The position numbers and the translations under genes are program-made. The notes below the pieces were generated by a model. That model did not search any database and was not told the origin of the DNA. It saw only the letters and a list, made by a program, of their open reading frames with translations. A DNA stretch of 64,000 nt from Hymenobacter sp. BRD67 (GTDB lineage: Bacteria; Bacteroidota; Bacteroidia; Cytophagales; Hymenobacteraceae): assembly GCF_013256425.1 (NCBI RefSeq), contig NZ_CP053904.1, positions 3,472,001 to 3,536,000 on the forward strand. The letters run 5' to 3'. This document shows positions 10,618 to 47,769 of this stretch, in pieces. Within the stretch, counting starts at the first letter, position 1. Each line of letters opens with the position of its first letter.

Positions 10618-10911
10618 ATATTATTTTTACTATATATAAAATGTGTGTACCTGGCTGTCGGCTGGCATGGCCCGCGTCGTAGGAAAGCAACTTCTTTTTT
10701 CTTGCCGACGAAAAAGCCTACCCTACTCTCCAAATGCGATTTCTTACGGCTGCAAAGCTACCAAAAGACTGTAAAGCTTATTTTTAGCGCAGCTATTGCT
10801 GGCGTAGCGGCTACAAAATCAGCTTTGCACAGCCTTGAGCTTGAGCCATTGCTGGTTTTTGGCATAAAGTCTGTTACTACCCAGCCCAAATCCAACTAAG
10901 TAAGTGTTTGG

Positions 10912-29325: not shown

Positions 29326-32325
29326 ATGAATGTTTCTACTGCGCAACCTTTTCAACTCGTTTACTCGCTGTTCGCGCACGAGTACCTGGGCCATTTATTT
29401 ACGGCGCACGTGGTGCAGCTGGGCCCCCGCGGCCAGCTCACGCTGCAGCACCAGACGATTTCGGTCAAAAATGCGCCTGAGTTTGCGGATGGCCTAGAGC
29501 GCGACGACTATGAGCTGATTGCACTCTGCGACCAGCTTCAGCAAGATGCGGTTATCAAGGAATTCTGGCCCCGCAAAATCACGCCGGCCGAGTTTTTCCT
29601 GAAAATCTACAATGCGGAGAAAGGCGACAAGCCCATGCAGGAAGCCATTGCGCGCTACGTGCAGTCGCGCCTGGGGCGGCTGCTGGCGGGCCTACAGGGC
29701 AAGCAGGTTTTCATTATGGGACGCGATGGCGAGCCCACCTGGCGCGAGCTGAAGCTGGCGCCTACGCCCGCCTCGGTGCTTTTCCACTTTCGGCGCAATG
29801 AAGAAAGCACGCACTACTTTCCGACCATCCAGTACCAGAATCAAAAGCTGGACTTTCAGTTTAAGAATGCCGTGCTGGTGTGCCAGCAGCCGGCCTGGCT
29901 GCTGGTCGATGACGTGCTCTACTGCTTTCGGCACGATGTAGACGGGCGCAAGCTGCAACCCTTTCTGAATAAGAAGTTTATCATGGTGCCCCGCGCCGTG
30001 GAGAAGAGTTATTTCCAGAAGTTTGTGGCCCCGCTCATGGAGTCGTTCGACGTGCACGCGCGCGGCTTCGACATCCGAACCGAGCGCTACCTGGCACGGC
30101 CGCAGCTTACGTTTTCCGATATGCCGGCGGGGCCGCCGGCCGGTGCCCCGGTGGTACCCGTGCGCCCGCCCGGCCCGCCCCGGCGCGGCCGGGTACCCCT
30201 GCCCAAGCCCGTAGTAGTGCCCGGCCTGGGCACCGACGAAGCACCGCTCTTTTTCACGCTCACGTTTCGCTACGGCGCCTATGACTTGCCGCTGACGCCG
30301 CCGCGCCCCATGAGCGTGCAGCTGGAAGAGGATGCAGATTCCTATATATTTCGCCGCCTACTCCGTTCGGCGAAGGAAGAAAACGAGCGGGCCGATGTGC
30401 TGCGCCAGCGCGGCCTGCCGCTCGATGCCGATGGCCACGCATCCTTACCCAAAGCCGATGCCTTCCGCTGGCTGCACGACAACGCGCCCGCGTTGTCAGA
30501 GCTGGGCTACCAGGTGCAGGGCGCGGCCTCGGCCAGCCAGGATTATTTCATTGGCCCGGTACGGGTTGATGTGGGCATTGAGGAGCGCGGCGACTGGTTT
30601 GACGTGCGCGGCACGGTGTGGTTTGGCGAGTTTGCAGTGCCGTTTATCCGGCTACGGCCCTATATTTTGCAGCGCCGCCGCGAATACCGCCTACCCAATG
30701 GCCAGGTGGCCTTCATTCCCGACGAGTGGTTTACCGACTACCTCGAGCTATTTGCTTTTGCCGAGGAAAGCGAGGGCCAGCCGCTGGCTTTGCGCCGCCA
30801 TCACCTTTCGCTGATTACAGATTTAGAGCAGGATAACCTGGCCACTGTTACGCTCACGCGCCGGCTCGAAAAGCTGCGCGACTTTGCCGCCGTGGAAGAC
30901 CGGCCGCTACCGGCAGGCTTTCGGGGCACTTTACGGCCTTATCAGCAAGCCGGCTACAACTGGCTGCGCTTTGTGCAGGACTATCACCTCGGCGGCTGCC
31001 TGGCCGACGATATGGGCCTGGGCAAGTCGGTGCAAGCCCTGGTCATGCTGATGGAGCGCAAGGAAAGCGGCGCGGCCAACGGCGCGGCTTCGTTACTGGT
31101 ACTACCTACCTCATTGGTACACAACTGGATAAACGAGGCCCGTAAATTTACGCCCAGTCTGCGGCTGCTGGCCTACACTGGTACGTACCGCACTAAGGAC
31201 GTGGCTCAGTTTGCCGACTACGACGTGGTGCTGACCAGCTACGGCATTGTGCGCCTCGACACGGAAATGCTGGCCTCGTACCAGTTCGACTACGTCATTC
31301 TGGACGAGTCGCAGGCCATCAAAAACCCCAGCTCGACAACGGCGCAGGCTGTGCGGCAGCTGCGGGCGCGGCATCGGCTCATCCTCACCGGCACGCCGGT
31401 TGAGAACAGCACCATGGACTTGTGGTCGCAGATGTCGTTTATCAACCCTGGCTTGCTGGGCACCCAGGCATTTTTCCGCAAGGAATTTGTGAAGCCCATT
31501 GAAAAGCATCAGGACGAGAGCCGCACCCGCAAGCTGCACGCGCTCATCAAGCCCTTCGTATTGCGCCGCCACAAAGCGCAGGTAGCCAGCGAGCTGCCTG
31601 CCAAAACCGAACACCTCAGCTATTGCCCGCTCACCGACGAGCAGCAGCAGTTTTACGAAGAAACCAAGAGCTTTTACCGCAATAAAATTCTGGAAACGCT
31701 CGATGGCCACGCCCCAACCCCGGCCGGCGGTACCCAGCTTATGCTACTGCAAGGCCTGACGCGCCTACGCCAGATTGCCAACCACCCGCGCCTGGCCGAC
31801 CAGAACTACGCGGGCGAGTCGGGCAAGATGCGGGAGATTCTGCGCATGATTCGCAGCGTGGTAGCCGAAGGGCACAAAGTATTGGTATTCAGCCAATTTG
31901 TACAACACCTGAGTTTGGTGCGCGCCGGCCTCGACGAGCGCCAGCTGGCCTACGCCTACCTCGACGGCCACACCCGCGACCGTCAGGGTGAGGTGGCGCG
32001 CTTTCAGGAGACTCCCGACCTGCAAATCTTCCTTATCAGCCTTAAAGCCGGTGGCGTGGGGCTCAACCTCACGGCGGCCGACTACGTCTTCATCCTCGAC
32101 CCGTGGTGGAACCCTGCCGTGGAGGCCCAGGCCATCGACCGTGCTCACCGCATTGGCCAGCAGCGGCCCGTATTCGTGTACAAATTCATCAGCCAGAACA
32201 CGGTAGAGGAGAAAATACTAGCGCTACAAAAGCGTAAGCTCAAGCTGGTCAGTGATTTGATAACGACCGATGAGGCCGTGATAAAGTCGCTGACCCGCGA
32301 GGATATTGAAGAGCTGCTGGGGTAA
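29326..32325 (+). CDS. SNF2-family DEAD/DEAH helicase
   Basis: Large Swi2/Snf2 ATPase of 999 residues that moves along double-stranded DNA. The N-terminal 550 residues have no recognised domain apart from a Pro-rich linker (about 265-300). The motor is complete: Walker A LADDMGLGKSVQALVML (about residue 558), DESQAIKNPSS (about 660) and LTGTPVENSTMDLWS. The second lobe carries VFSQFVQHL, YLDGHTRDRQ, GGVGLNLTAADYVF and RAHRIGQQRPVFVYKF (about 936). No nuclease domain is visible at the C-terminus. It lies 120 bp before the lipoprotein gene of the motor-cytoskeleton cluster on the same strand; whether it belongs to that cluster is open. It could equally be a housekeeping RapA-like factor. Confidence 0.95.
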   Translation: MNVSTAQPFQLVYSLFAHEYLGHLFTAHVVQLGPRGQLTLQHQTISVKNAPEFADGLERDDYELIALCDQLQQDAVIKEFWPRKITPAEFFLKIYNAEKGDKPMQEAIARYVQSRLGRLLAGLQGKQVFIMGRDGEPTWRELKLAPTPASVLFHFRRNEESTHYFPTIQYQNQKLDFQFKNAVLVCQQPAWLLVDDVLYCFRHDVDGRKLQPFLNKKFIMVPRAVEKSYFQKFVAPLMESFDVHARGFDIRTERYLARPQLTFSDMPAGPPAGAPVVPVRPPGPPRRGRVPLPKPVVVPGLGTDEAPLFFTLTFRYGAYDLPLTPPRPMSVQLEEDADSYIFRRLLRSAKEENERADVLRQRGLPLDADGHASLPKADAFRWLHDNAPALSELGYQVQGAASASQDYFIGPVRVDVGIEERGDWFDVRGTVWFGEFAVPFIRLRPYILQRRREYRLPNGQVAFIPDEWFTDYLELFAFAEESEGQPLALRRHHLSLITDLEQDNLATVTLTRRLEKLRDFAAVEDRPLPAGFRGTLRPYQQAGYNWLRFVQDYHLGGCLADDMGLGKSVQALVMLMERKESGAANGAASLLVLPTSLVHNWINEARKFTPSLRLLAYTGTYRTKDVAQFADYDVVLTSYGIVRLDTEMLASYQFDYVILDESQAIKNPSSTTAQAVRQLRARHRLILTGTPVENSTMDLWSQMSFINPGLLGTQAFFRKEFVKPIEKHQDESRTRKLHALIKPFVLRRHKAQVASELPAKTEHLSYCPLTDEQQQFYEETKSFYRNKILETLDGHAPTPAGGTQLMLLQGLTRLRQIANHPRLADQNYAGESGKMREILRMIRSVVAEGHKVLVFSQFVQHLSLVRAGLDERQLAYAYLDGHTRDRQGEVARFQETPDLQIFLISLKAGGVGLNLTAADYVFILDPWWNPAVEAQAIDRAHRIGQQRPVFVYKFISQNTVEEKILALQKRKLKLVSDLITTDEAVIKSLTREDIEELLG

Positions 32326-32445: not shown

Positions 32446-33762
32446 ATGCGCAACCACCTTTCGGCGGCTTTTCTGACTTTTACTCTTGGTAGCGCCCTGC
32501 TCAGCAGCTGCGGGGAAGTCAAGGACGACTCTCCCCAATCTACTACCGCTCCAACAACGGCGACAGCAAAGCCCAGAGTGGCAGCTGATACCAAGGCATT
32601 GCCCTTGCAGGCCAACGTTTTTTTGGAGCTGTCGGGCGGTATGCGGGGCTTTATGCCGCAAAACACTACGGCCACCGAGCCGACCGCTTTTCAGCAGCGC
32701 ATTGGCCAGTTGGCTTCGCGCACCAATAGCAGCCCGGCCGTGGCGGATGCGCAGTTTTGGCTCTCGCTGAATAAAGCCCCACAAAAAAGCACCTACGGAC
32801 ATTTTCGGGAGATTGTGCAGGGCGATACGCATGAGGCGGCACTGGGAACGGAGCTGCCCACAATGCTCGAAAATATCCTGGCATTGCCCGGAGCCGCTGA
32901 CAAGGTAAACGTTATTACGTCGGACTTTATATACGGCCCCAAAAATCAGGCAACCAGCGCGTTGATGAATGTAAATATCACCGACGCGCTGGCCACTGTC
33001 ACCAAAAAGCAATTGGCCGTAGCCGTGCTCGGCGAAACCTCCCGGTTTTATGGCAATTTCTTCCCGGCTGTGAAAACGCCGCACAAGCAAGTAGTGCTAA
33101 AGGGCGAGAGTATGCCTTACTACATCTGGATAATCGGGCCGGCCGTGGCCGTGGCCCGCTACCTCAACGAGGTGTTGCCCGCGCCTTCGGCCGCTACCCA
33201 GCAGGCTTATTTTGGCCTGGCCTTCCCTAGTGTGCCTTATGCGGCGGTGCTCACGCAGGTGCCGGCCACCAGCCCACTCGCACCGGGCGGTGGCGGGTCC
33301 ATTTCATACAGCGGGGCCGGGGTAAGTACGAATCTGGACGTTTCCTCCGTTAAGCAGGGCGTAGACTTTACCGTGGCCCTCGACCTGCGTCAGTTGCCGG
33401 CCGCCTGGCGCGAGCCAGCTTTTTTGGCGCACAACTTGCAGGCCCAGGTGCCCGATGGCAGCGTAACGCTGCTGCCCAACTCCATTAAAACAACCGCCGG
33501 TGTTCCCCAGCTGCAAGCTTATACCCACACGTTGCGCCTGCATCTCAGCGCCTTCCCTAAGGCGGGCGGCCAGCTCCGGCTAGCGCTGTCCGCGCCGGGT
33601 ATCCCGGCCTGGGTAGCCCAGCGCAGCACCGAAAACGATAACCAGCCCGGACCGGTGCCACACACCTACCGCCTCAGTGAGATTATGAACGGCGTACGCG
33701 AAGCTTTCCCACAGACTTTACCAGCCGTTTTCACCGCCTCTTTCACACTTGCTCAGCAATAA
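32446..33762 (+). CDS. Lipoprotein with a possible degenerate vWA-like domain (first gene of the motor-cytoskeleton cluster)
   Basis: A 438-residue lipoprotein: LTFTLGSALLSSC with the lipid-attachment Cys at about residue 22. After a Thr/Ala-rich linker the domain opens NVFLELSGGMRGFM, which resembles the MIDAS loop DxSxSM of von Willebrand A domains but with Glu for Asp and Gly for the second Ser. A later strand reads VNVITSDFIYGPKN. The C-terminal half looks beta-rich (LHLSAFPKAGGQLRLALSAP). Metal binding is therefore doubtful. It precedes a small membrane protein gene by 11 bp and seems to open a seven-gene plus-strand unit ending with a MotB-like gene. Role unknown; outer or periplasmic sensing is a guess. 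Confidence 0.72.
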   Translation: MRNHLSAAFLTFTLGSALLSSCGEVKDDSPQSTTAPTTATAKPRVAADTKALPLQANVFLELSGGMRGFMPQNTTATEPTAFQQRIGQLASRTNSSPAVADAQFWLSLNKAPQKSTYGHFREIVQGDTHEAALGTELPTMLENILALPGAADKVNVITSDFIYGPKNQATSALMNVNITDALATVTKKQLAVAVLGETSRFYGNFFPAVKTPHKQVVLKGESMPYYIWIIGPAVAVARYLNEVLPAPSAATQQAYFGLAFPSVPYAAVLTQVPATSPLAPGGGGSISYSGAGVSTNLDVSSVKQGVDFTVALDLRQLPAAWREPAFLAHNLQAQVPDGSVTLLPNSIKTTAGVPQLQAYTHTLRLHLSAFPKAGGQLRLALSAPGIPAWVAQRSTENDNQPGPVPHTYRLSEIMNGVREAFPQTLPAVFTASFTLAQQ

Positions 33763-33773
33763 CTTTCTTTTCC

Positions 33774-34184
33774 ATGCAGCAATTCTTTAACAGCCTCTAT
33801 ACCAATGGTATCGAGCTATTCTACGACCGCAAATCGCCGATGTACGGGCTTTACAAGGCCGAGATTTTTAACACTGCTGGCTTCTATACCCTGCTCACTG
33901 CGCTGGCACTGGTAGTGGCTTTTTACTATATATTCAATTATGCCGTGCCAACCCTTACTCATCAGGGTTTATATCGGCCTACGCATTGGCTGCTGGTGCT
34001 GCTGCTGGTGGCCGGCCTGGGTGCCCTGCTGGCCTACCGCGTAAGCATAGGCGCAGAAGCAGTACGCGACCCGTACATGCGCTATTTCATCATTACCAAC
34101 ACGTTGGTGGCGCCGCTGTGGTTTGTCCTCTTCTCGCTGATTTTGAAGTGGGGGTCTAATCACGCCCGCCGCACGCCATTTTAG
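33774..34184 (+). CDS. Small three-helix membrane protein of the cluster
   Basis: A 136-residue integral membrane protein with three hydrophobic segments: FYTLLTALALVVAFYYIF, WLLVLLLVAGLGALLAYRV and TLVAPLWFVLFSLIL. No family recognised. It lies 11 bp after the lipoprotein gene, so the two are almost surely co-transcribed; it may anchor the cluster's other products to the inner membrane. A 130-bp gap with an imperfect palindrome separates it from the tubulin-like gene. Confidence 0.7.
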   Translation: MQQFFNSLYTNGIELFYDRKSPMYGLYKAEIFNTAGFYTLLTALALVVAFYYIFNYAVPTLTHQGLYRPTHWLLVLLLVAGLGALLAYRVSIGAEAVRDPYMRYFIITNTLVAPLWFVLFSLILKWGSNHARRTPF

Positions 34185-34316: not shown

Positions 34317-35800
34317 TTGGCTCGTCTTTTCATCTTTGCCGTGGGCGGCACCGGCGCGCGGGTGCTACGCTCTCTCACCATGCTGCTGGCTGCTGGCATG
34401 CGCCTGCCCGATTGCGACCAGGTAGTGCCCGTGCTGGTAGACCCCGACACCCAGAACGGCGACGTAACCCGCACCGTCGACCTGCTTAAGCGCTACGCCC
34501 GCATCCACAACGCGCTACACCAGGACGGGCAGCATGTTAAAGGCGAAGGCTTTTTTGGGCAGCCGCTCACCACCCTGGCTCAGCTTAACACCTCGGGCGT
34601 GGAAGGCCTGCGCGACTCGTTTGTGTACGACTTTGGCGGCATCAATCAGTCGTTCAAGGACTTCATGCACTACAACGAGGCTTCGGTCGAGACGCGGGGT
34701 TTGCTGGACCTGCTCTTCACCCCCGATAGCCTCAATGCCAGCCTCGACCTCGGCTTTCGGGGCTCGCCCAACGTGGGTAGCGTAGTGCTGAATTCTTTGG
34801 TGCAAGCCAAGGAAATGCGCTACTTGGCCCAAAGCCTGAACACCGACGACCGGGTATTTTTTATCAGCAGCATTTTTGGCGGCACGGGCGCGGCAGGCTT
34901 TCCGCTGCTGGTCAAGAACCTGCGCGACCCTGGGGTAGACCTGCCGCAGCCTTCGGTGCGGGCCGCAGTGCCCGCCGGAGCACTGGTGCTGCTACCTTAC
35001 TTTAAGCTCCAGCAGCCTTCGGCCGAGGAGAAGAAGAACGGCCAGGATTTTATCGACTCCAATACCTTCATTACCAAAACCAAGACGGCGCTGAGCTACT
35101 ACGCCGAGCACCTGGAAGGCCTGGAAGCCATGTACTACCTCGGCGACCAGGCCGGCCAGCCGCTGCCCAACAACCCCGGCCGCGCCGAGCAGCGCAACCA
35201 GGCACACTTGATTGAGCTGCTGGGGCACTCTCGATTCCCCACTTTCTGGGGCAGCCTGCCAGTCAGCTCGACCGCGGCAGTCCGGCTTACCACGAATTTG
35301 GCTTGAAGAGCGACGAGCCAACGGTTGACTTCGGGCAGCTGCCACCCGCTTTGCGCCGCGAGGTAGCTCGGCCCATGATTCAGTTTCACTACTTCGCCCG
35401 GTATTTCCGACAGCATTTGCTCGAAGAGAAAAACGCGCCGCTTTATAAAGGCGGTAAGCTGGGCCAGCATCTGCCCGCCAGCACCGGCCCGCTGGCAGAC
35501 CTTACCGACTTCTTTACGGAGTACGAAAGCTGGCTGCGCGAGCTGGGCGTGAGCGAGCGCCGCTTCGGCGCCCTGCACCCCGACGAAACCGACTTTAATA
35601 AGATGGTAGCGGATAAGCCCATCGCTACCAGCTTCTTCAATAAAGGGCTGACCGACGATGTAATTCGCGCCGAGCTGAATGACGCTGTGGGGAAAACCAA
35701 TCTTGACAACCCCGATGCGCCCCGTGCGCTGCGCTGGCTGGTGGAAGCCTTCAACAAGGCTACCGAAAAGGTTGTCGACACCAAGCTGCAATACTCGTAG
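34317..35800 (+). CDS. Tubulin-like GTPase-type protein, frame broken by a 1-base deletion
   Basis: Predicted tubulin/FtsZ-fold nucleotide-binding protein of the bacterial tubulin-like (Tubulin_2) kind. It begins (TTG start) LFIFAVGGTGARVLRSL, a Rossmann-type glycine loop. At residues 187-196 it has FGGTGAAGFP, matching the position and shape of the tubulin signature GGTG[ST]G although Ala-Ala replaces the Thr-Gly pair. The frame shifts in the G run 35222-35225; one added G gives LIELLGALSIPHFLGQPASQ and extends to FNKATEKVVDTKLQYS, 494 residues in all. It is followed 84 bp later by a protein with an actin/Hsp70-type ATPase. Filament formation is possible but unproven. Confidence 0.78.
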
Positions 35801-35884: not shown

Positions 35885-38800
35885 ATGGCCAAGATACTTC
35901 GCCTGCACCGCACGGGTTCCAGCACTCACGAAGGCTGGGGCCGCACCGGCAAAATCGGCAAAAATGAGATTGATGGTCCCAGCGGCATTCTCGACCCCGA
36001 GGGCGGCCGGGCCGAGCGCGTGGCGGTGGCAATTCCGTCGCCCTTTGCCCGCCTGCACCTGGTAGAAACGGCGCTGGCCTATGTGGGCAGCAACGGCGGG
36101 GCCACCGACACGGTGCATCACCGGCTGGTAGGCCAGTTCTGGGACTTGTGGGAGCTGGTATTCAACTACTTTCAGCGGCGGCAGTCGGGTCAGCGCCTGA
36201 GCGTGCGCACCTGGAATAAGGCCACCGAGCTGGCCCGCCTGGAAGCCAACCCACAAACCAAGCCGCTCGCGCAGGCGCTGGCACTGTACCTCAATGGCAA
36301 GCGCTTTGCCAATCTTACGGAATTGAACCTGTTATACTTCCCTGGCGCTACTGCCCAGGAAGCGCCTCAGCTGCTGGGCGGCACTTCGCCACTCACGCTT
36401 TTTTTTCCGGCGCCGGCGGTGCGCGTCCTGCCCGTGCAGCGGCCCGAAGGCGGGGGCTACTACTTCGATGGCCGCTACGTAGCGTTGGGCCAGCGCGAGC
36501 AGGCATTTCAGGACTTCATCTACCAGCAGTTTGTGGCCGACCCGGCGCTGGCCCGGCTGGCCCCGGCAGTGCGCAATGCGCTTGATGCCAACATTCTGAA
36601 TAAGTGGGGACTGGATGGCAACGCCCAGCTGGCCGACTACCCGCTGCTCACCGACCAGGCTGGCAACCCGGTAGCCGTGGCCGGCGTGGCCGTGCGCGTG
36701 CGCCCCGATGAGGGTGTCGTGCGTAACTCCGACTTCACCATCCGGCCCAACCGCGTGCCGGTGCCCGGCTGGCCGCTGCCCAACCCGCTGCCGCTGGTGC
36801 TGCGCCCTGGCCTGCAGGTGCCGGGCAAATTTTATTACAACAACTCGCTGCTGGGCGATAGTGGCACCAAGGTGCCCGCCGCCGACGCCCGCGCCCTGGC
36901 CGACCGTACCCTGCCCGGCCCCGAGCTGGCCTACCCCTATCTCACGCTCAACGACCTGCTGGAAGAAACGCTGCTCACTGTGCCCTACGAGGTCGATAGC
37001 AGCCGCTTCGTGACCGGCCAGCTCAAAACCGCGCCCGGCTACAAACCCACGTGCTGGCCGCTGCTGCCGGTGAAGCCCCTTTACTTCGATTACTTCACAC
37101 CGGCTGAGCTGGCTACCCAGCTCACGCTGGAGCTGGACCCGGCCTGCGTGCGGGTGCGCCTACGCATTCCGGTAGCGGGCGGCTTCACCGTGGACTATGA
37201 GCGTGCCTACTACCCCAACCCGCGCACCGAAGGGCTGGGCCGTTTGCTGGTAACCAACGTCGGGCTATCGGTTTTCCCTTTCGTAAAAATCGCGGATGCG
37301 CCCCAGCTCAACGACTTTTACAAAGTAATGCTGGTCGATGCCAACAACATTGACCCCAGCCTGGTCCACAAGCCGGTAGAGCTGCAATTTGGGGTGCAGG
37401 GCCGGCTGCTGTCGGCCAGCGGCACCGAGCAGAGTGCCACCGCCTACCGCCGCACGCCCAAAACCAGCACCGACGAGGGCAGCACCTACTACGAAATTAA
37501 AGGCACGCCCTTCGACTATGTGGTGGTGAGCAGCCCCGCGCCGGCGGCCGGGCAGGCGCTCGTGGTACCAAGGTGGCGCGAGGTGCGCCAGGGTACCAAA
37601 GAGTTCCGCTTTGCCATCGACTTTGGCACTACCAATACGCACGTGGCCTACCACGACGGCCCCAGCCAGCCACCGCAGCCGTTCAATTTCGGGCCCGAAG
37701 ATTCGGCCGTGGCCTTGTTGAAAAAGTCTTCGGAGGAAACCGATTATCAGGCTTACGAGCAGCTGCACCGGGGCATTGAGGAAGACCCGGCCCACGGTAT
37801 TCAGCTGCGGCGCTGGCAGCGCTACCAGCAGCGCGAGTTTGTGCCCTCATTCGTGGGAGCGGGCGGGTCGCCCTACCAGTTTCCTATCCGTACGGCCACC
37901 AGCGAAGCGCCGGGCTTCTCTATCGAGACGCCGCGGCTGCTGGCCAACGTCAACGTGGGCTTTGGCATTAATACGGAAGAGGAAACCAACGACTCGTACC
38001 ATACCAACCTGAAGTGGGGCGATACCAGTGAGGCTGCCCGCCACCGGGTGCGGATGTTTTTCCGCGAGATGCTGCTTTTGTTCAAGTACAAAGCAGCCTT
38101 GCATGGCGGCAACGTATCAGCTACGCAGGTGGTGTGGTTCGCGCCGCTCAGCTTTTCGGCGTTCAGTCGCGACCTGTACCAGCGCGAGTGGGATACGCTG
38201 TTTAAAGAGATTTTTCACACCAGTCGCGGCACCACGTACTTGCCCGAGTCGTCAGCCCCGTATTTTTTCCTGACCCGGCGCGGGCTAGTCACGCCCGGCC
38301 CCGGCGAGAATGCGGCGTTTATCGATATCGGCGGCGGCACTTCTGACGTGCTGTTTTATTCTGACCAGACGGCCAACCCGGCGGGTCCGCGCAAGCACCA
38401 TCCGGCATTCAGTACATCGTTTCGCTTTGCCGGCAATGAGCTGTGGGGCGACGGCGCGGCCGACGTGCGCGGCACCAAAGACAACGGCCTCGTGCGCTTC
38501 GGCCTCGACAGCATCAAGGCTCACCCGCTGCCCCAGACCAAAGCCGCCGAGCTGGCCGTGAAGTGCCTGGCCGTAGTGGAAGCCAATCCGGCCTTCGGCT
38601 CGGAGGAGGTTGCTAGTCTGCTCTTTAACTATGAGCGCGAGTTTCAGTTTGGGGAGCGGCTACTGCTGGCTCAGCACCTACGCGTGCTGTTTTACCTGCA
38701 CTTTGGAGCCATCGTGTACCATCTGGGTCAGGTAACGGCCCTGCGGGGGCTGGCTGCGCCGCGCTACCTGTGCTTTACAGGGCGCGGCAGCCTCTACCTG

Positions 38801-39346
38801 CGCCTGCTGTGCCCAACCAACCTGCGGCCCTTGGAGCAGGTGGCCAGCCTCATCTTGTCGAAAGTAATGGGCACGCCCGCGCCCGCCAATTTTAAAATCG
38901 TGCTGGCCGACGACCCCAAGCAGACTACTGCCAATGGCGGCGTACTCGCCACTGGCCTCGATGCTGAAAGCACTGCGGAGGTGCCGCCCATCGTGCAGCC
39001 CGTGGGCACTGGTACCGAGGAGCAAGCTGAAAACCGGCCCCTCTACCCTACCGACATAACGGAGGACGTGAAAAATGCCGTAATCGCCAACGTGGAGAAG
39101 TGCCTCACCCTGCTCCTCACTGACCCCGACCTGGTGGCGGCAATGCACAACCTGGGCATCAAAAACCCGCCCGGCCTGGTGCTCCGCGAGCTAACCGCTG
39201 CCCTGGCCGATTCCTTTAACCTGGGCCGCCAGCGCTATGCCAACACATTGCCGGCTGGTGAGCCAATTCCGGAAACACTGTTTTTCCTGCCGCTGAAACA
39301 CGCGCTCTACGTGCTGTCGCAGGTACTGCACAGCTCGGCTAACTAA
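35885..39346 (+). CDS. Large protein with C-terminal Hsp70/actin-type ATPase domain
   Basis: A 1153-residue cytoplasmic protein. Residues 1 to about 560 form a region I do not recognise, with beta-rich and Pro-rich parts. From about 573 an actin/Hsp70-superfamily ATPase begins: phosphate-1 loop FAIDFGTTNTHVAYHDG, phosphate-2 loop FIDIGGGTSDVLFYSD (about 808) and the adenosine-type loop CFTGRGSLYLRLL (about 963). No DnaK-type substrate-binding domain follows; the last 100 residues are helical. SrfB-type proteins are one possible relative. It sits between the tubulin-like gene and a membrane protein (10 bp gap to the next start), so is firmly in the operon. Likely an ATP-dependent switch or filament partner (inference). 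Confidence 0.8.
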   Translation: MAKILRLHRTGSSTHEGWGRTGKIGKNEIDGPSGILDPEGGRAERVAVAIPSPFARLHLVETALAYVGSNGGATDTVHHRLVGQFWDLWELVFNYFQRRQSGQRLSVRTWNKATELARLEANPQTKPLAQALALYLNGKRFANLTELNLLYFPGATAQEAPQLLGGTSPLTLFFPAPAVRVLPVQRPEGGGYYFDGRYVALGQREQAFQDFIYQQFVADPALARLAPAVRNALDANILNKWGLDGNAQLADYPLLTDQAGNPVAVAGVAVRVRPDEGVVRNSDFTIRPNRVPVPGWPLPNPLPLVLRPGLQVPGKFYYNNSLLGDSGTKVPAADARALADRTLPGPELAYPYLTLNDLLEETLLTVPYEVDSSRFVTGQLKTAPGYKPTCWPLLPVKPLYFDYFTPAELATQLTLELDPACVRVRLRIPVAGGFTVDYERAYYPNPRTEGLGRLLVTNVGLSVFPFVKIADAPQLNDFYKVMLVDANNIDPSLVHKPVELQFGVQGRLLSASGTEQSATAYRRTPKTSTDEGSTYYEIKGTPFDYVVVSSPAPAAGQALVVPRWREVRQGTKEFRFAIDFGTTNTHVAYHDGPSQPPQPFNFGPEDSAVALLKKSSEETDYQAYEQLHRGIEEDPAHGIQLRRWQRYQQREFVPSFVGAGGSPYQFPIRTATSEAPGFSIETPRLLANVNVGFGINTEEETNDSYHTNLKWGDTSEAARHRVRMFFREMLLLFKYKAALHGGNVSATQVVWFAPLSFSAFSRDLYQREWDTLFKEIFHTSRGTTYLPESSAPYFFLTRRGLVTPGPGENAAFIDIGGGTSDVLFYSDQTANPAGPRKHHPAFSTSFRFAGNELWGDGAADVRGTKDNGLVRFGLDSIKAHPLPQTKAAELAVKCLAVVEANPAFGSEEVASLLFNYEREFQFGERLLLAQHLRVLFYLHFGAIVYHLGQVTALRGLAAPRYLCFTGRGSLYLRLLCPTNLRPLEQVASLILSKVMGTPAPANFKIVLADDPKQTTANGGVLATGLDAESTAEVPPIVQPVGTGTEEQAENRPLYPTDITEDVKNAVIANVEKCLTLLLTDPDLVAAMHNLGIKNPPGLVLRELTAALADSFNLGRQRYANTLPAGEPIPETLFFLPLKHALYVLSQVLHSSAN

Positions 39347-39355
39347 CTCAGGCCT

Positions 39356-40654
39356 ATGAAAATTAGCCATCGGCTCCTGTATTTGTCGCTGCTGCTGGGC
39401 GCTGGCCATTCGGGAATGGGTCAAACCGTTTCGGCCCCGAGCCCCGACGATAGCCTGAAGGGTAAAATATGGACCGCTACCGCGCGCCGTATCTGGGCCG
39501 ATACCAAGCCGCCCCAGCCTCAACCAGCCGCCTGGCCTACGGTCGAGGCGTTTGAGGACTGGCGCCTGGCAACCCCGGCCGACAAGTCGGAGCTGGGGTT
39601 ATTGCGCGGCGATGTGATAAAAAGCATCGGTACTGGCACCAAAGCCACCCCGCAACAGGTAGCGCAGGTAATCTTAACTGAGATAAGCAGGCGCCAGCAA
39701 AGTAAAAAAGGCCGCCTGACCCGCCTGAAGCTGACGGAGCTAAAAACTACCCTGGCTACGCTCACGCAGCCCAAGGCCCTGGCTACCAATCCTCAACCCG
39801 CTGATTCGACCGCACTCGCGGCCCCGGTGCCGGCCGCCGCGCCACCTACGGTAGCCGAGGACCAGCACCCCAGGCCGGAGCCGGCAGCAGCGCCACCTGC
39901 CCGGGACTATACGGTAACGGAGGGTGAGCCGCGCTACTTCGGCCTGCCGCCTACCCTGGCGGGCTTGTTGTTGCTAGTAATAGGCGGGACGGCAGGCATA
40001 GGCCTGGCTAGGGCCCTGCGCTCCAGCTCGCGGAACCGCCGCCGTCACCATGACCACCCTACCTCCGCTGAATTAGACGCTACTGCCATCATGAACTCGC
40101 AGGAATACCGCAAGCTGCACAAGCAGAATGAGAACCTCAGCACGCAGCTGAAACGCCTTCGGCAGGAGCTGGACGAGCTTAAAAAGCAGCTTTCGGGCGT
40201 GCCGGCGGCCCCAACCAAAAAAGCACCTTCACTTAAGCTCCCGCCGCCCATTGCGGCCGCGCCGTTGCCGCCTCAGGAGCTTTCCATCGAAGAGCTGGTA
40301 GGTGCGCCGGCCGAAGCGCCGACTGCATCTGCGCCCGCCGCTACGCGCTACGGCCCGGTACAGGAAACGCCCTTCGTAGAAGAGCGCAAAATTGTGGATA
40401 TGCCCCTGCCCCAGCTCGCGCTAATGCTGACGGTGAACCCGCGCAACCCCGACCAGGCCACCTTTACGCTCAATCCGCAGGTAGACCAGGCCCGCCTTAT
40501 CGGCGATGGATTGACCCGGCTGCAAAAATTCTTCGACTACGACCCGCCTATTGGGGGCCGCATTACTTCGGTGGCGGCCGTGAAAGCAGGTAAGCTTGAG
40601 CGCCACGACAACGGCTGGCAGGTAGTAGAGCGGGCGCGGCTGCTAATCAGCTAG
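39356..40654 (+). CDS. One-pass membrane protein with signal peptide and coiled coil
   Basis: A 432-residue protein with an N-terminal signal (LLYLSLLLGAGHSGMGQ) and a periplasmic helical domain (about 25-140). A Pro/Ala-rich linker and a single membrane helix at about residues 200-220 (LAGLLLLVIGGTAGIGLARAL) follow. On the cytoplasmic side are a basic stretch (RNRRRHHDH), a coiled coil (QNENLSTQLKRLRQELDELK), a Pro-rich linker and a small C-terminal domain. The layout could link the periplasm to the actin-like and tubulin-like partners. No known family. Ten bp after the actin-like gene, 26 bp before the MotA-like gene. Confidence 0.7.
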   Translation: MKISHRLLYLSLLLGAGHSGMGQTVSAPSPDDSLKGKIWTATARRIWADTKPPQPQPAAWPTVEAFEDWRLATPADKSELGLLRGDVIKSIGTGTKATPQQVAQVILTEISRRQQSKKGRLTRLKLTELKTTLATLTQPKALATNPQPADSTALAAPVPAAAPPTVAEDQHPRPEPAAAPPARDYTVTEGEPRYFGLPPTLAGLLLLVIGGTAGIGLARALRSSSRNRRRHHDHPTSAELDATAIMNSQEYRKLHKQNENLSTQLKRLRQELDELKKQLSGVPAAPTKKAPSLKLPPPIAAAPLPPQELSIEELVGAPAEAPTASAPAATRYGPVQETPFVEERKIVDMPLPQLALMLTVNPRNPDQATFTLNPQVDQARLIGDGLTRLQKFFDYDPPIGGRITSVAAVKAGKLERHDNGWQVVERARLLIS

Positions 40655-40680: not shown

Positions 40681-42396
40681 ATGTCATTACAATTACTTGA
40701 AATCGTTCTCATTCTGGGCCTTATTGCCTGGCAGGGGTACACATTCTTCCTCAATCGCAGTCTTATTCAGCGGGTGCAGGGCATGTACCCCGACGTGGCT
40801 CAGTTGGGCGTTGAGGCAGTAGAGGTAACGGAAAACGAATTTTCGAGTCTGCCTCCTAAAGAGCGGATTCTGCAGGGCCACAGCTCTTTTACCTGGGCTT
40901 TCTACCCTGGGCAGGAGTTTGCCATAATGCAACGGCCGGGTGACGGAACAGTGCAGGTAAGCAAATGGAATAGCACAGCTAATCAATGGGAAATCTTCAA
41001 TCAACAGCCGGAAAGCGCAGTACTTCAGTTTATTAATGCTGGCGACTTCCAGCTTGCGCATGACCTAACCAACCGGACTGCGTTTGATGCGCTGACCGTG
41101 GCTCGGCCCAGCCCCGAGTTTGCCCGCATCGTTACCGATACCAACGATTACCTGCAAGCCAATAAAGGGGCGGCGGCCGACTTCAACACCCTGCGCGATA
41201 TATCGGAGCGCGAAACTGCCCTGCTTGACCAGGAGATTGAGGCCCAGCTTTCTACGCCGCTTTACCTGGGGTTGCTGGGCACCTTTCTGGGAGCCATCCT
41301 GGGGCTGATAGCCCTAGTAAATCCTTTTGGCGCGGCACCAACCGCGGAGGCCAGCGCCACGGGTGCGTCATCGTTCAACAACGCCGACGTCACGCACTTT
41401 CTGGGCGGCATTCTCATCGCCATGAGCGGCAGCTTTACCGGCCTGCTGCTGACGCTGGCCGGCAACCAGTTGCTGAAATCGGCCCGTGCCACCCGCGACC
41501 GGCTTAAGAACGGGTACTACAACTTCCTGCAAAAGGCGCTGCTGCCCCGGCTCAACACCGACATGCAGAATAGCATGAGCAGCCTGCGGGCCGTGCTCGA
41601 CACGTTCAACCAGGATTTTTTCTCCAAGATTCAGGTTGATTTTTTTGCTAAAATCGCGGAGTTTACCCCGCTCATCAGCCGCATAACCGAGAATATCAGC
41701 ATCCAGAAAGACTTCCTGGAAAAGCTGCAAACCATCGGCTACACTGAGCTGGCCAATGCCACCATCAAGGTATTCGACCGGGTAGATGAGAGTGCCGCTT
41801 CGTTCGAGAAGTTTCTAGGCTACCAGCAGGCCCTCAACGTGGCCGTGAGCCAGGGGGCCGACACGGCGCGCACCATCACGGCCCTGCTCGACCGCCTCGG
41901 CAGTCTCGAAAAAGCGCTGAACCAGGTGCCTGGCTACCTGGCGCAGCACGACGCCCGCATCCGGGAGCAGGCCCAGTTTTTTGGCGAGCACCAAGCGCTG
42001 CTGGCTAAAATCAGCCAGGGTGTGGGGCAGGCGCTGAGCGAAGATGCCGCGCAGATGAACCAGGTGCTGGCGCGCCGCCGCGAGGAGTTTGAGCAGGAAG
42101 CCCAGGCGGCGCACGCCCAGTGGTCGGCGCACTTCCGCCAGCTCAACCAGGACAATGTGTATCAGAAAATTGTGGAGTATCTGTCGCCGTTCCAGCAATT
42201 GCCGGCGCAGCAGCAGGCCCTCAACCAGCTCCAGGAAACCCAGGCCCGCCATAGTGCCGAGGCGCTGCAGGCCCTGCAACAGCCGCTGGAGCAGAACCGC
42301 CGCATTCAGGAAGAGCTGCTGCGCCAAACCGAGCGCACCAACGCCGTGCTCGAAAAGCTCACCCAGCGCAACTGGCTTCAACGCATGGTCGGCTAA
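40681..42396 (+). CDS. MotA/TolQ/ExbB (ZorA)-like membrane protein with a long coiled tail
   Basis: Probable ion-channel stator subunit of 571 residues. An N-terminal helix (LLEIVLILGLIAWQGYTFFL), then a cytoplasmic insertion, then the paired helices typical of MotA/ExbB: PLYLGLLGTFLGAILGLIAL (about 193-212) and FLGGILIAMSGSFTGLLLTL (about 240-260) with the conserved small and hydroxyl residues. The remaining 300 residues form a long helical, Gln/Ala/Glu-rich tail (for example RRREEFEQEAQAAHAQWSAH), the layout seen in ZorA of Zorya defence systems. It is followed 6 bp later by a MotB-like gene, the matching partner. No flagellar genes are present. Confidence 0.85.
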   Translation: MSLQLLEIVLILGLIAWQGYTFFLNRSLIQRVQGMYPDVAQLGVEAVEVTENEFSSLPPKERILQGHSSFTWAFYPGQEFAIMQRPGDGTVQVSKWNSTANQWEIFNQQPESAVLQFINAGDFQLAHDLTNRTAFDALTVARPSPEFARIVTDTNDYLQANKGAAADFNTLRDISERETALLDQEIEAQLSTPLYLGLLGTFLGAILGLIALVNPFGAAPTAEASATGASSFNNADVTHFLGGILIAMSGSFTGLLLTLAGNQLLKSARATRDRLKNGYYNFLQKALLPRLNTDMQNSMSSLRAVLDTFNQDFFSKIQVDFFAKIAEFTPLISRITENISIQKDFLEKLQTIGYTELANATIKVFDRVDESAASFEKFLGYQQALNVAVSQGADTARTITALLDRLGSLEKALNQVPGYLAQHDARIREQAQFFGEHQALLAKISQGVGQALSEDAAQMNQVLARRREEFEQEAQAAHAQWSAHFRQLNQDNVYQKIVEYLSPFQQLPAQQQALNQLQETQARHSAEALQALQQPLEQNRRIQEELLRQTERTNAVLEKLTQRNWLQRMVG

Positions 42397-42402
42397 GGCG
42401 TT

Positions 42403-43167
42403 ATGAAACAAAGTAAAGACTTTTTCTGGCCCAGCTACGTCGACCTGATGACGGCGTTGTTTCTGACTATGCTCGTGCTCTTTGTGCTGAGCTACAAGCT
42501 ATTTCAGGATGAGAGCGAGCGCCTCAAGGAAGCTAATAAACAGCTAAATGCTCGCCTTGAGCAATTAGATGTTATCCAGCGTATAGAAAATTCTTTACGC
42601 ACTATGATGAGCGACAAGACATTGTTCCAATACGAGCCGAAATTCCGACGTTATACTTTAGCTAGAGATGTAGCCTTCGTTGGCGGGAAATGGGATTTGT
42701 CCTCTCCAGAGAAAGCGTTGCAACATCCTGAAGATGCAAAGTACTTGGCAGCTACTGGTGAGAAGCTTCGAATTATAGTCGATTCGCTACTAATCCTGAA
42801 GAAGAGCACACCAAAGCTTAGAGATGTTTCTTACGTACTAGCGATAGTTGGAAGTGCCTCTAATTTATATAAAGACCCATACCATCCAAAATATGACACT
42901 TACGCGTACACAAGCTATGAGAATTGGAACTATATACTAAGTTATCAAAGAGCTAAGTCATTATACGACTTTTGGAAAAATAACAACATTGTTGATTTTG
43001 ATTCCAAGAAGTACCACGACGTAGTTGAGTTAATTTTAGCGGGTAATGGCTTCGGTGGCGTAGGTAGGTATAATGAGAACGGTGCGGAATACAACACTGA
43101 GGAATGGAAGAATCAGCGGTTTTTGATTCAGATAATTCCAAAAGTTGGTCGCGTAGTTCTCAAGTGA
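42403..43167 (+). CDS. MotB/OmpA (ZorB)-like membrane protein
   Basis: Partner subunit of the MotA-like channel, 254 residues. The N-terminus SKDFFWPSYVDLMTALFLTM carries the MotB-type helix with its key Asp at residue 14, the proton- or sodium-carrying site. A charged coiled segment (about 40-65) leads to a C-terminal OmpA-like domain: YVLAIVGSAS, then YILSYQRAKSLYDFWKNN, and near the end NQRFLIQIIPKVG, matching the NRRVEI-type end of peptidoglycan-binding domains. The distance between these motifs is long, so binding of peptidoglycan is probable but not certain. From about 42540 to the end the DNA is only about 37-43% GC, unlike the first part of the gene. Confidence 0.85.
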   Translation: MKQSKDFFWPSYVDLMTALFLTMLVLFVLSYKLFQDESERLKEANKQLNARLEQLDVIQRIENSLRTMMSDKTLFQYEPKFRRYTLARDVAFVGGKWDLSSPEKALQHPEDAKYLAATGEKLRIIVDSLLILKKSTPKLRDVSYVLAIVGSASNLYKDPYHPKYDTYAYTSYENWNYILSYQRAKSLYDFWKNNNIVDFDSKKYHDVVELILAGNGFGGVGRYNENGAEYNTEEWKNQRFLIQIIPKVGRVVLK

Positions 43168-43220
43168 CTTTCACCTTACTCAGTACCAATCTCCCTGGCA
43201 CACCAGAAATATTGCAATCC

Positions 43221-43660
43221 ATGCACTTACTGCTCTGCTTCCCCGTGGCTCAGCCGCCCGACCAGGTGCTGGCCGGCTTCACCCGCGAGCTGTTTGTGAC
43301 ACTGGCCCCGCCCTTTCCGAAGCTGCATCTAATTCGCTACGACGGCAGCACCACCGGCGACACGGTCATTATCGAGCTGCAAGCCGGCCCCAAGCGCTGG
43401 CGCTGGACCTCGCTCATCACCGACAATGGCACCTTGCCGGATGGCACGCGCTACTTCGTGGACGAAGGGCAGCTGCTGCCCGCGCCGCTGCGGCAGTGGC
43501 GCCACCGCCACCTCATTGCCCCGCGCCGGGCGGGGGCAGTGTCATCATCGAGGATATTACGTTTAGCACCGGCCGCCGCTGGCTCGATGTGCTGATTTGG
43601 CCTACCATGTGGGCGCAGTTCAGTCTGCGCGGGCCAGTGTACCGGAAGTGGTTTAAGTAA
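43221..43660 (+). CDS. SRPBCC-like (START/Bet v1 fold) protein, frame broken by a 1-base deletion
   Basis: A 146-residue cytoplasmic protein. The first part (MHLLLCFPVAQPPDQVLAGF ... DTVIIELQAG) ends prematurely in the current frame. Adding one G to the run 43532-43536 continues it with GGSVIIEDITFSTGRRWLDV and a C-terminal FSLRGPVYRKWF, the helix and end typical of SRPBCC-type ligand-binding proteins. No enzyme role can be assigned. It follows the MotB-like gene by 53 bp and is convergent with the acetyltransferase gene. Returns to high GC, so it is probably not part of the motor cluster. Confidence 0.7.
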
Positions 43661-45406: not shown

Positions 45407-45421
45407 TATTTATTTTGAAGT

Positions 45422-46225
45422 ATGGTACTATCCTATTTCGATGAATCAGGTGACGATGGCTTTCCACGCCGTTCGTCTGACCTGTTTGTGTTAGCCAGCG
45501 TTTCTATGCTAGATACGGAATGGAAGTTTAACTTTCAAAAGTTACTTGCTTTCCGACGTGAGCTACTCGGTAAATATAACTTTCCAGTCAAGCAGGAATT
45601 TCATACGCGTGAGTTTATCCAGGATAAAAATCCTTATCATGGCAAATACGCTCCTGAAATCAGGCGCGAAATACTTTTTCGCTACATCGCCACTTTGGCT
45701 ACTTTACGTTTAAAAGGTATTGTGGTAGTAATTGACAAAACTAAAATCAAGAATCAAAAATATCCTGTATTAGAAAATGCTCTTACATATAATATTCAAA
45801 GAATAGAAAATAGCCTGTTGAAAGCTGCTGATACCAAACAACAAAGGGCTGAGCAGTTTATGATTATCACAGACGAAGGCAGAGTAGGAGCAATGACTAA
45901 CGTATCACGAAAAATACAGAAGATAAATTATATACCCTCCCAATACGAATCCTCAAGCACCCGCCAGGAAATCCGGCTACTGGTGGAAGACCCTTTGCCG
46001 AAAAATTCCGCACAATCCTATTTTATTCAGGCAGCTGACACACTAGCCTTTATCACGATGCTTTATGCTACCAAGCATTTGTGCACCAACTTAGAATGGG
46101 CTAATCGGGTAAAGCGAGTACTTGCTGAGCAGGATGCTGTATTATTGATGGAGGCAGCCATTCCAATTCTCAATACCAAAGCCAGTAGCAGTAATCGCTA
46201 CGGTATAGTTTGCTACCCTCGCTAA
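45422..46225 (+). CDS. DUF3800-family protein
   Basis: A 267-residue protein opening MVLSYFDESGDDGF, the Asp-Glu-Ser-Gly signature of DUF3800, a family with an RNase H-like fold often found in mobile or defence regions. Later features fit: VVVIDKTKI, IITDEGRV and FIQAADTLAFIT (the conserved Q-x-AD). A nuclease role is suspected for the family but unproven. The DNA is about 27-45% GC in its middle, well below its neighbours, which suggests transfer. It starts 15 bp after rlmI and ends 48 bp before a carotenoid desaturase gene. Frame intact. Confidence 0.85.
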   Translation: MVLSYFDESGDDGFPRRSSDLFVLASVSMLDTEWKFNFQKLLAFRRELLGKYNFPVKQEFHTREFIQDKNPYHGKYAPEIRREILFRYIATLATLRLKGIVVVIDKTKIKNQKYPVLENALTYNIQRIENSLLKAADTKQQRAEQFMIITDEGRVGAMTNVSRKIQKINYIPSQYESSSTRQEIRLLVEDPLPKNSAQSYFIQAADTLAFITMLYATKHLCTNLEWANRVKRVLAEQDAVLLMEAAIPILNTKASSSNRYGIVCYPR

Positions 46226-46273
46226 AAAAAACACCACCTACGGCCCATTCGGACTTTCAGTGGTTCGCCGCAA

Positions 46274-47769
46274 ATGTACGGAAAATCCAGGAGTTTGTCG
46301 AAACCTGCCGTTGCCATTATCGGCGCGGGCGTGGCGGGGCTGGCGGCTGCCGCGCGGCTGGCCATTGCCGGGCACCCGGTCACGGTATTCGAGGCCAGCG
46401 GCTCGTTTGGGGGCAAAATGCAGCAGTTTGAGCTGCCGGGCGGCTACCGCTTCGATGCCGGGCCGTCGCTCTTCACGCTGCCGCAATTGGTAGACGATAT
46501 TTTTCGGCTGGCCCACCGCGAGCCCACCGACTACTTCCGCTACGAGCGCCTCGACCCCATTACCAACTATTTTTTTGCCGACGGTACGCGGCTGACTGCC
46601 TGGGCCGACGCAGAAAAGTTTGCGGCAGAAGTGGAGCAAAAGCTTGGGGTGCCGGCGGCGCAGGTCACCAATTTTCTGGCCCGCAGCGGGCGGGCGTATG
46701 ACGCTACAGCCGGCACGTTTCTGCATAAGTCGCTGCACAAACTAGGCACCTACCTCAGCACCGAAACGCTGAAGGCCGTGGCGGCCCTGCCCAGTCTGGG
46801 TCTCACGGGCACCATGCACGCGCGCCACGCCAGCGCCTTTGGCAACGACTCCAGGTTGGTGCAACTATTTGACCGCTACGCTACTTACAACGGCTCCGAC
46901 CCGTACCAAGCCCGGCTACGCTCTCGCTCATTCCGCACCTCGAGCACGGCATCGGGGCCTTTTACCCCGAAGGCGGCATTTATGCCATTGCCCAAAGCCT
47001 GCACCGGCTGGCCGAAGAGTTTGGGGTAAAATTCCGGTTCAACGAGCCCGTGCGCGAAATCCTGACGGCCGGCGACCTCATCACCGGCCTGCGCACCGAC
47101 CAGGATGTCTACGATTTTAGCCTGGTAGTGAGCAACATGGACGTGGTACCTACTTACCGCCACTTGCTCCCGCACCAGCCCGCGCCCGAGCGCACCCTGG
47201 CGCAGCCACGCTCGTCATCGGCGCTTATTTTTTACTGGGGCATCGCCCGTGAGTTCCCCGAGCTGGATTTGCATAATATAGTATTTTCTGAATATTACAA
47301 GCAGGAGTTCGACGCCATCTTCCAGCAGCAGACCGTGGCCGACGACGTGACGGTGTACGTTAACATTACTTCTAAAAAAACGCCCACCGATGCCCCGGCC
47401 GGCCACGAAAACTGGTTTGTGATGGTGAACGTGCCCCACGACCAGGGCCAGGATTGGGAGGCGCTGACCGCCAAAACCCGCCGGGTAGTGCTAGCCAAGC
47501 TTAGCCGCACGCTGGGCGTTGAGCTTGAGCCCCTTATTAAAGCCGAAAGGCAATGGACCCCTCCCGGCATTGCGGCCGACACCTCGTCGTTTGGCGGGGC
47601 GCTGTACGGTAGCTCCAGCAACAATGCGCTGGCCGCATTTTTACGTCACCCCAACTTTTCGAGCCGGCTGAATGGGCTGTACTTTTGCGGTGGCTCAGTG
47701 CATCCGGGCGGTGGTATTCCGCTGTGCCTGCTTTCGGCCAAAATTGTAGCCGAACTCATTTCTAATTAA
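46274..47769 (+). CDS. Phytoene desaturase-family protein (probably CrtD-like), frame broken by a 1-base deletion
   Basis: FAD-dependent carotenoid desaturase of about 498 residues. Dinucleotide motif VAIIGAGVAGLAAAARLA, then VFEASGSFGGKMQQFELPG; the C-terminus has the family pattern YFCGGSVHPGGGIPLCLLSA. One C added to the run 46911-46913 restores SDPYQAPATLSLIPHLEHGI and joins both halves. Because the next gene is CruF-like (1',2'-hydratase), a 3',4'-desaturase (CrtD) role for making a flexixanthin-type carotenoid is more likely than primary phytoene desaturation (CrtI), but the two cannot be told apart by eye. An AT-rich palindrome overlaps the stop codon. Confidence 0.87.

What the first reader, a model, noticed from the sequence alone, without database searches (positions are those of the whole stretch)
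42540..43167. AT-rich C-terminal domain grafted onto a GC-rich MotB-like gene
The first 130 bases of the gene have normal GC; from about 42540 the coding sequence drops to about 37-43% GC by hand count and stays so to the stop codon, then normal GC returns in the next gene. The change coincides with the border between the membrane helix and the OmpA-like domain. This looks like exchange of the outward-facing domain, as expected for a part under selection by phage or cell-wall variation.
Basis: seen in the sequence. Interest (0 to 1): 0.6.

Follow-up and report, generated by a model that had tools for sequence, protein, structure and literature searches.

The report
Swapped outer domain of bacterial motor
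In this Hymenobacter bacterium the outward-facing half of a motor anchor protein has been replaced by a version from outside its genus while the membrane half stayed the same, a very clean natural domain swap whose purpose is not yet known.

Summary
The gene 42403-43167 encodes a ZorB/MotB-like stator protein of a Hymenobacter. A sister genome (G010) is colinear over the window. Its DNA matches to 42509 and again from 43221; between, 711 bp here face 592 bp there without alignable DNA. Residues 1-36 (membrane helix) are identical, the rest 26% identical, while the neighbouring ZorA tail is 99%. G010 carries the domain of its clade (80-85%), so the window genome is the recipient; its domain is 22-33% identical to all 117 others of the genus. 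It groups with another genus of the family (53-54%; support 100/100), whereas ZorA groups with G010 (100/98); AU tests reject the alternatives. No close donor, viral relative or second copy was found. The domain also changed allele in at least two other lineages, and one genome differs in the whole seven-gene operon at the same place. The ZorA/ZorB-like pair is in 118 of 120 genus genomes, so this is not an ordinary accessory defence island. Exchange is as good as shown; that phages or wall chemistry drive it is untested.

The parts
42403..42509 (+). Retained native part of the ZorB/MotB-like gene: N-terminus and membrane helix, residues 1-36
   Evidence: Colinear with G010 up to 42509; identity 1.00 to G010; helix from residue 9
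42442..42444 (+). Asp14, counterpart of the ion-conducting Asp of ZorB
   Evidence: Profile alignment to ZorB chains 8qyd_F and 8vvn_B puts D14 on D26 and D24; D24 of ZorB is called crucial for defence (PMC11890865, passages); invariant in the 10 sequences
42510..43220 (+). Replaced block: linker helix, OmpA-like domain, stop codon and spacer; 711 bp here, 592 bp in G010, no alignable DNA
42511..43164 (+). Foreign extracytoplasmic domain, residues 37-254
   Evidence: 0.26 identity to G010, 0.22-0.33 to all 117 other genus proteins; 53-54% to genus g3, against 34% for G010 in the same search; tree 100/100 with g3
42616..43146 (+). OmpA-like core, about residues 72-248
   Evidence: Predicted model, mean pLDDT 70; best matches ZorB 8qyd_F E 2.9e-6 and 8vvn_B E 3.5e-4, then YiaD/OmpA/MotB domains
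40681..42396 (+). ZorA/ExbB-like partner: three membrane segments (judged by eye) and a long tail
   Evidence: 97% identical over 571 aa in G010; no ZorA match for this protein in PADLOC, none above cut-off in Pfam or NCBIfam; its g3 ortholog hits ZorA3 at 2.2e-4
40831..41079 (+). Optional loop domain of the ZorA-like protein (residues 51-133)
   Evidence: Long loop in window, G010, G080, G072 and in G122, G128, G129, G158; short in the other 17 of 25 rows aligned
39356..40654 (+). Operon gene: membrane protein with coiled coil (by eye), no family above cut-off
35885..39346 (+). Operon gene, 1153 aa; ATPase-like motifs of the actin/Hsp70 type seen by eye only
   Evidence: no Pfam, PADLOC or NCBIfam match; motifs recalled
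34317..35800 (+). Operon gene, weakly tubulin-like; one frame of 494 aa in G010, split into two ORFs here
   Evidence: Pfam Tubulin E 0.0092, below cut-off
32446..34184 (+). Operon genes: lipoprotein-like protein (by eye) and small membrane protein
   Evidence: found in the same order in relatives; no PADLOC match

Best explanation
The gene is a chimera. In the ancestor of this genome, after its split from G010, homologous recombination replaced the DNA from codon 36 to the start of the next gene by DNA from a relative of lower GC, of the lineage of family genus g3 or an unsampled neighbour of it. The membrane helix with its ion-binding Asp, and the ZorA-like partner it sits in, stayed native; the extracytoplasmic anchor (linker helix plus OmpA-like domain) became foreign. 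Shown: the block, its borders, the direction, the affinity of the imported domain. Inferred: that recombination used the conserved helix-coding stretch and the downstream gene as flanks; that the protein works as the stator of an ion-driven ZorAB/MotAB-like motor, with the exchanged domain gripping the cell wall or another envelope part; and that the anchor is a module which can be changed without changing its motor. Estimated: exchange 0.97; ZorB-like stator 0.85; exchange adaptive rather than neutral 0.5.
For: Sharp junctions at 42509/42510 and 43220/43221 against a colinear genome; among the gaps between the long matches over 64 kb it is the only one with more than 150 bp on both sides. ZorB 1-36 identity 1.00, ZorB 37-end 0.26, ZorA tail 0.99. 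G010 domain 0.80-0.85 to G107, G106, G058, G081, G055; window domain at most 0.33 to the 117 others. ZorB-C tree: window with G128+G129 100/100; ZorA tree: window with G010 100/98. AU: window held with 13 kin in ZorB-C p 2e-28, window+G010 p 7e-5; window+g3 in ZorA p 9e-28. Lowest of 114 genomes in relative GC; change point. Frame intact, 254 codons. Same operon in g3. Fold and family: PADLOC ZorB 1e-7, Foldseek, VIA-align Z 10.1 to 8vvn_B. Further allele changes: G071+G086 p 7e-61, G073 p 4e-34.
Against: The donor itself is not found: the nearest domain is only 53-54% identical in 204 family and 390 drawn order genomes. The window row sits on a long branch (0.6) and the tree output warned that long branches meet around it. 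The groups in the AU tests were named after the trees were seen. Models have middling confidence (pLDDT 70-73), and Z 10 is modest for a model with a long helix. The His-Thr-Asp stretch of ZorB's OmpA-like domain is kept in neither the native nor the foreign domain. Mosaicism is not limited to this domain: G050 and G112 have 91-92% Hsp-like (part compared) but 72% ZorA identity to the window.
Confidence: 0.88

Rival explanations
1. The domain diverged in place by fast evolution under strong selection, with drift to AT.
For: The domain is outward facing and variable in the genus; G080 has an AT-rich domain (GC3 0.44) that is still 74% identical to G010's, so AT drift without far import may exist.
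Against: DNA identity is about 97% on one side of a single base and not alignable on the other; the domain is nearer to another genus than to its own.
Confidence: 0.02
2. Assembly chimera or contamination.
For: The assembly has one-base differences from G010 that break frames nearby and is rated 94% complete, 1.6% contaminated.
Against: The block lies inside a 4.4-Mb contig with both flanks colinear to G010 for over 20 kb each apart from the gap at 45407, joins in frame, ends just before the next gene and keeps the invariant residues of the family.
Confidence: 0.02
3. Exchange by a programmed system (silent cassettes, inversion, shufflon) within the genome.
For: Domain-level switching of outward parts is known from such systems (recalled).
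Against: Only one match to the block and one to the domain in the window's own genome; the genome is rated 94% complete, so a missed cassette is possible.
Confidence: 0.02
4. The exchange is real but selectively neutral: a stator anchor tolerates various OmpA-like domains, and this was a chance event. (Not exclusive with the best explanation, only with its adaptive reading.)
For: One such event in 64 kb against G010; other parts of the operon are mosaic too; partners did not need to change.
Against: The same domain changed allele in at least two more lineages; no background rate was measured.
Confidence: 0.4

Closest known systems
Zorya ZorAB (ZorA5:ZorB2 motor; PMC11890865, abstract and passages seen)
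   Same: ZorB-like N-terminus with the essential Asp, OmpA-like outer domain, partner with a long tail; best Foldseek matches are ZorB chains
   Different: No ZorC or ZorE match among the seven operon genes or the next gene; SNF2 helicase adjacent in only 3 of 14 loci; pair present in 118 of 120 genomes, whereas Zorya is an accessory system (recalled); far below NCBIfam's ZorB1 cut-off (22.2 against 400 bits)
MotB/PomB/MotS flagellar stators
   Same: Helix plus OmpA-like domain; MotS, MotB and PomB periplasmic domains among fold matches
   Different: No flagellar gene was recognised in the operon; the partner has an ExbB-like layout with a long tail (by eye)
FtsZl1 operons (PMC2875224, passages seen)
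   Same: Tubulin-like gene together with OmpA-family proteins
   Different: No vWA protein or kinase recognised here; tubulin match is weak (E 0.0092); MotA, TolQ, ExbB and Hsp70 have 0 occurrences in that paper's main text
Mosaic genes made by interspecies recombination (e.g. pneumococcal PBP genes; listing only)
   Same: Homologous replacement inside a gene by DNA of another species
   Different: Here one border falls at the membrane/periplasm boundary, and the imported part is only 26% identical to what it replaced

Membership tests
Zorya | ZorB: helix with conserved Asp and OmpA-like domain | tested here: met
   PADLOC ZorB E 1.1e-7; D14 on D24/D26; fold
Zorya | ZorA partner | tested here: inconclusive
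   No ZorA hit for the window protein, weak ZorA3 hit for the g3 ortholog, 2.2e-4
Zorya | ZorC+ZorD or ZorE genes in the same operon (recalled definition) | tested here: not met
   Operon proteins and the next gene scanned without ZorC/ZorE match; the nearby SNF2 protein matches ZorD (7.5e-118) but DpdE better, is below NCBIfam's ZorD cut-off (234.9 against 1500), and is adjacent in 3 of 14 loci
OmpA-like peptidoglycan-binding domain | Fold | tested here: met
OmpA-like peptidoglycan-binding domain | Wall-binding residues | tested here: inconclusive
   In the profile alignment to 8vvn_B, R183 and R239 fall on Arg, but the His-Thr-Asp stretch is Ser-Ala-Ser here and Arg-Ala/Thr-Ala in the native domains
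Gene mosaic by recombination | Sharp borders, conflicting trees of the parts | tested here: met

The most novel reading that the evidence does not exclude
The operon is an undescribed, nearly universal ZorAB-like surveillance machine of Hymenobacter and its family, in which an envelope-sensing anchor is coupled by an ion-driven motor to cytoskeletal-type ATPase/GTPase proteins, and its sensor domain (and sometimes the whole operon) is repeatedly replaced across species because phages or rivals select for new versions.
Probability: 0.25. Interest if true: 0.75.

Novelty: new variant of a known kind. Interest (0 to 1): 0.5.

Why it matters
It is a clean natural experiment: two genomes with ZorA-like proteins that are 97% identical carry anchors that are 26% identical outside the membrane. 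If both work, the outer domain of such motors is a plug-in module, and the pair can show what it grips. It also points to an operon with weak tubulin-like and actin/Hsp70-like features and a ZorAB-like core, most of whose proteins have no above-cut-off name in Pfam or NCBIfam, and which varies by exchange although almost every member of the genus has it.

Tried and rejected
Donor hunt: family (204 genomes), order (390 drawn, overlapping with the family), viral contigs (six peptide patterns; 12 stretches matched, none a relative) and plasmids (one Parabacteroides record, 29.7%) gave no close donor. Pfam gave no match above cut-off for the ZorA-, ZorB-, Hsp-like and 39356 proteins. The SNF2 helicase upstream was considered as a ZorD and rejected as an operon member (at least about 5 kb beyond the lipoprotein-like gene was in view in each of the 14 loci). 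The AT-rich ZorA loop was considered as a second graft; it is an optional domain also present in G010 and other genera, so not part of this event. Literature, judged from titles and starts of abstracts: no paper holds both Hymenobacter and Zorya; searches for ZorB/MotB or OmpA-like domain exchange (with 10 of 254 listed, 77) and for the operon listed nothing that describes either; only that library was searched. In one search only the alignment is used; the per-30-base counts, the G010 translation and GC printed there are wrong (start position not found) and were discarded; one search replaces them. The trees use 41 of 118 genus genomes with a match and 5 of 6 other family copies fetched (the first copy of G158 was left out). 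Four genomes lack ZorA in the stretch fetched and were left out of pair and GC comparisons; four others with a split or partial ZorA (G014, G018, G090, G096) were kept.

Full report
What is there. The window lies in a Hymenobacter chromosome (inferred from the record titles of the nearest loci; G000:C1:3472001-3536000). The gene 42403-43167 encodes 254 aa with a ZorB-type N-terminus (PADLOC ZorB E 1.1e-7). The AlphaFold model (pLDDT 70) is one long helix 9-68 followed by an OmpA-like fold; its best Foldseek matches in the PDB are the ZorB chains 8qyd_F and 8vvn_B, then YiaD, OmpA and MotB-type domains; VIA-align puts 8vvn_B first at Z 10.1, a modest value for a model with a long helix. A native-type protein (L006) gives the same picture. 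Asp14 aligns with Asp26/Asp24 of those ZorB chains; D24 of ZorB is described as crucial for defence (PMC11890865, passages).

Composition. 42540-43167 is 40.4% GC. The first 137 bases are 46.7%, but their third positions are near normal, and a dip there is usual in relatives. The best change point of synonymous GC3 is codon 43 (42529), p 0.0096 within the gene and 2e-4, the floor of the shuffles, for ZorA+ZorB. Among 114 genus genomes with both genes in view, the window has the lowest GC of the outer domain relative to ZorA (-0.174; the other 113 have mean +0.009, sd 0.027). G080 (-0.130), G072 (-0.098) and G073 (-0.088) follow, so an AT-rich outer domain is not unique to the window.

The junctions. 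Genome G010 is colinear with the window at 91-96% DNA identity. Homology ends at 42509 and resumes at 43221: 711 bp in the window face 592 bp in G010 with no alignable DNA. Before the junction, 42403-42509 has 3 differences in 107 bases (counted by eye in the alignment), and the last 900 bp are about 98% identical (bins). The other gaps between the long matches in 64 kb are an extra 1009 bp in G010 at 10898, short spacers at 15375 (124 against 140 bp) and 60897 (46 against 110 bp), and 901 bp in the window against 113 at 45407-46307 (an AT-rich DUF3800 gene). The block is thus the only one with more than 150 bp on both sides; divergent stretches inside the long matches were not listed.

Direction and origin. 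ZorB residues 1-36 are identical in the two genomes and residues 37-end 26% identical; the ZorA tail is 99% identical. G010's outer domain is 80-85% identical to those of G107, G106, G058, G081 and G055, as expected from their ZorA; the window's is 22-33% identical to those of all 117 other genus proteins. The window is the recipient. Its domain matches G128 and G129, the two genomes of another genus of the family (g3; fetched loci 48-49% GC), at 53-54% over about 212 residues; in the same search genus members reach 40% at most and G010 34%. The trees conflict accordingly: ZorB-C puts the window with G128+G129 (100/100), the ZorA tail puts it with G010 (100/98). AU tests reject the window with 13 kin in ZorB-C (p 2e-28), window+G010 (p 7e-5), and window+g3 in ZorA (p 9e-28). 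Caveat: the groups were named after seeing the trees and the window row is long. G128 carries the same operon, so a homologous donor exists. The true donor was not found. There is no second copy in the window's genome as held, which argues against silent cassettes.

Recurrence. Of 894 genome pairs with ZorA tails at least 80% identical, 21 have outer domains under 60%: 8 pairs hold the window, 10 further ones hold G071 or G086, and 3 hold G073. So there are two more lineages with a changed allele; the data reject holding them with their ZorA kin (p 7e-61 and 4e-34), and also reject their allele group in ZorA (p 1e-7). Their DNA matches run further in, to about residue 85 in G071/G107 and G073/G025 and about 95 in G086/G107, so the junction at codon 36 is not a fixed site. 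At operon scale, G027 has flanks 81-94% identical to the window's (methyltransferase-like, ABC-like, SNF2, next gene, rlmI) but operon proteins at 28-53%, apart from the ZorB N-terminus at 94%: the whole operon differs at the same place, in which direction is unknown. ZorA is mosaic too: G050/G112 have 91-92% Hsp-like (part compared) but 72% ZorA identity. The outer domain is therefore one exchange unit among others.

The operon. Seven genes: lipoprotein-like, small membrane protein, weakly tubulin-like protein (Pfam Tubulin E 0.0092, below cut-off; split into two ORFs here, one of 494 aa in G010), a 1153-aa protein with ATPase motifs of the actin/Hsp70 type seen by eye only, a coiled-coil membrane protein, ZorA-like, ZorB-like. 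Upstream stretches were fetched for 14 loci: 13 show the lipoprotein-, tubulin- and Hsp-like genes; the fourteenth (G128) shows the first two and the rest is in L209. The ZorA- and ZorB-like genes are in 118 of 120 genus genomes. The SNF2 helicase at 29326 is adjacent in 3 of the 14 and so not part of it. PADLOC finds only ZorB-type matches of note in the operon.

How it probably works. By homology the pair is an ion-driven stator whose outer domain anchors to the cell wall or another envelope part. R183 and R239 fall on Arg of the ZorB chain, but its His-Thr-Asp stretch is absent in both native and foreign domains, so the ligand may not be standard peptidoglycan. Since the ZorA-like partner in the window and G010 is nearly the same, the new domain must work, if it works, with an unchanged motor: this would make it a plug-in module. 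Whether the change is adaptive is open.

Verdict. The observation and the exchange are confirmed; the cause is unproven. The event is a new case of a known process (in-gene recombination) in what looks like an undescribed relative of the Zorya/MotAB motors.

Noticed in passing
window 45407-46307: AT-rich DUF3800 gene (45422-46225) in a stretch of 901 bp where G010 has 113; relatives in 19 of the other 203 family genomes, none close (33% at best).
   Followed up: partly
window 35222, 43520, 45032, 46914: One-base differences from G010 break the frames of the tubulin-like, the next, the rlmI-like and a desaturase-like gene (names partly by eye); three of the four lie beside C runs and may be sequencing errors.
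   Followed up: partly
L228 and L088 (G027): Whole operon differs at the same chromosomal place: flanks 81-94% identical to the window, operon proteins 28-53% apart from the ZorB N-terminus.
   Followed up: partly
window 41610-42509: The 900 bp before the junction are about 98% identical to G010, against about 92% for the 27-kb match they end.
   Followed up: no
L073 (G080): Outer domain of ZorB is AT-rich (GC3 0.44) yet 74% identical to G010's domain: low GC without far import.
   Followed up: no
window 40831-41079: Optional loop domain of about 80 residues in the ZorA-like protein, present or absent among close relatives.
   Followed up: partly
L213, L214 (G158): A family genome with two divergent copies of the operon.
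   Followed up: no
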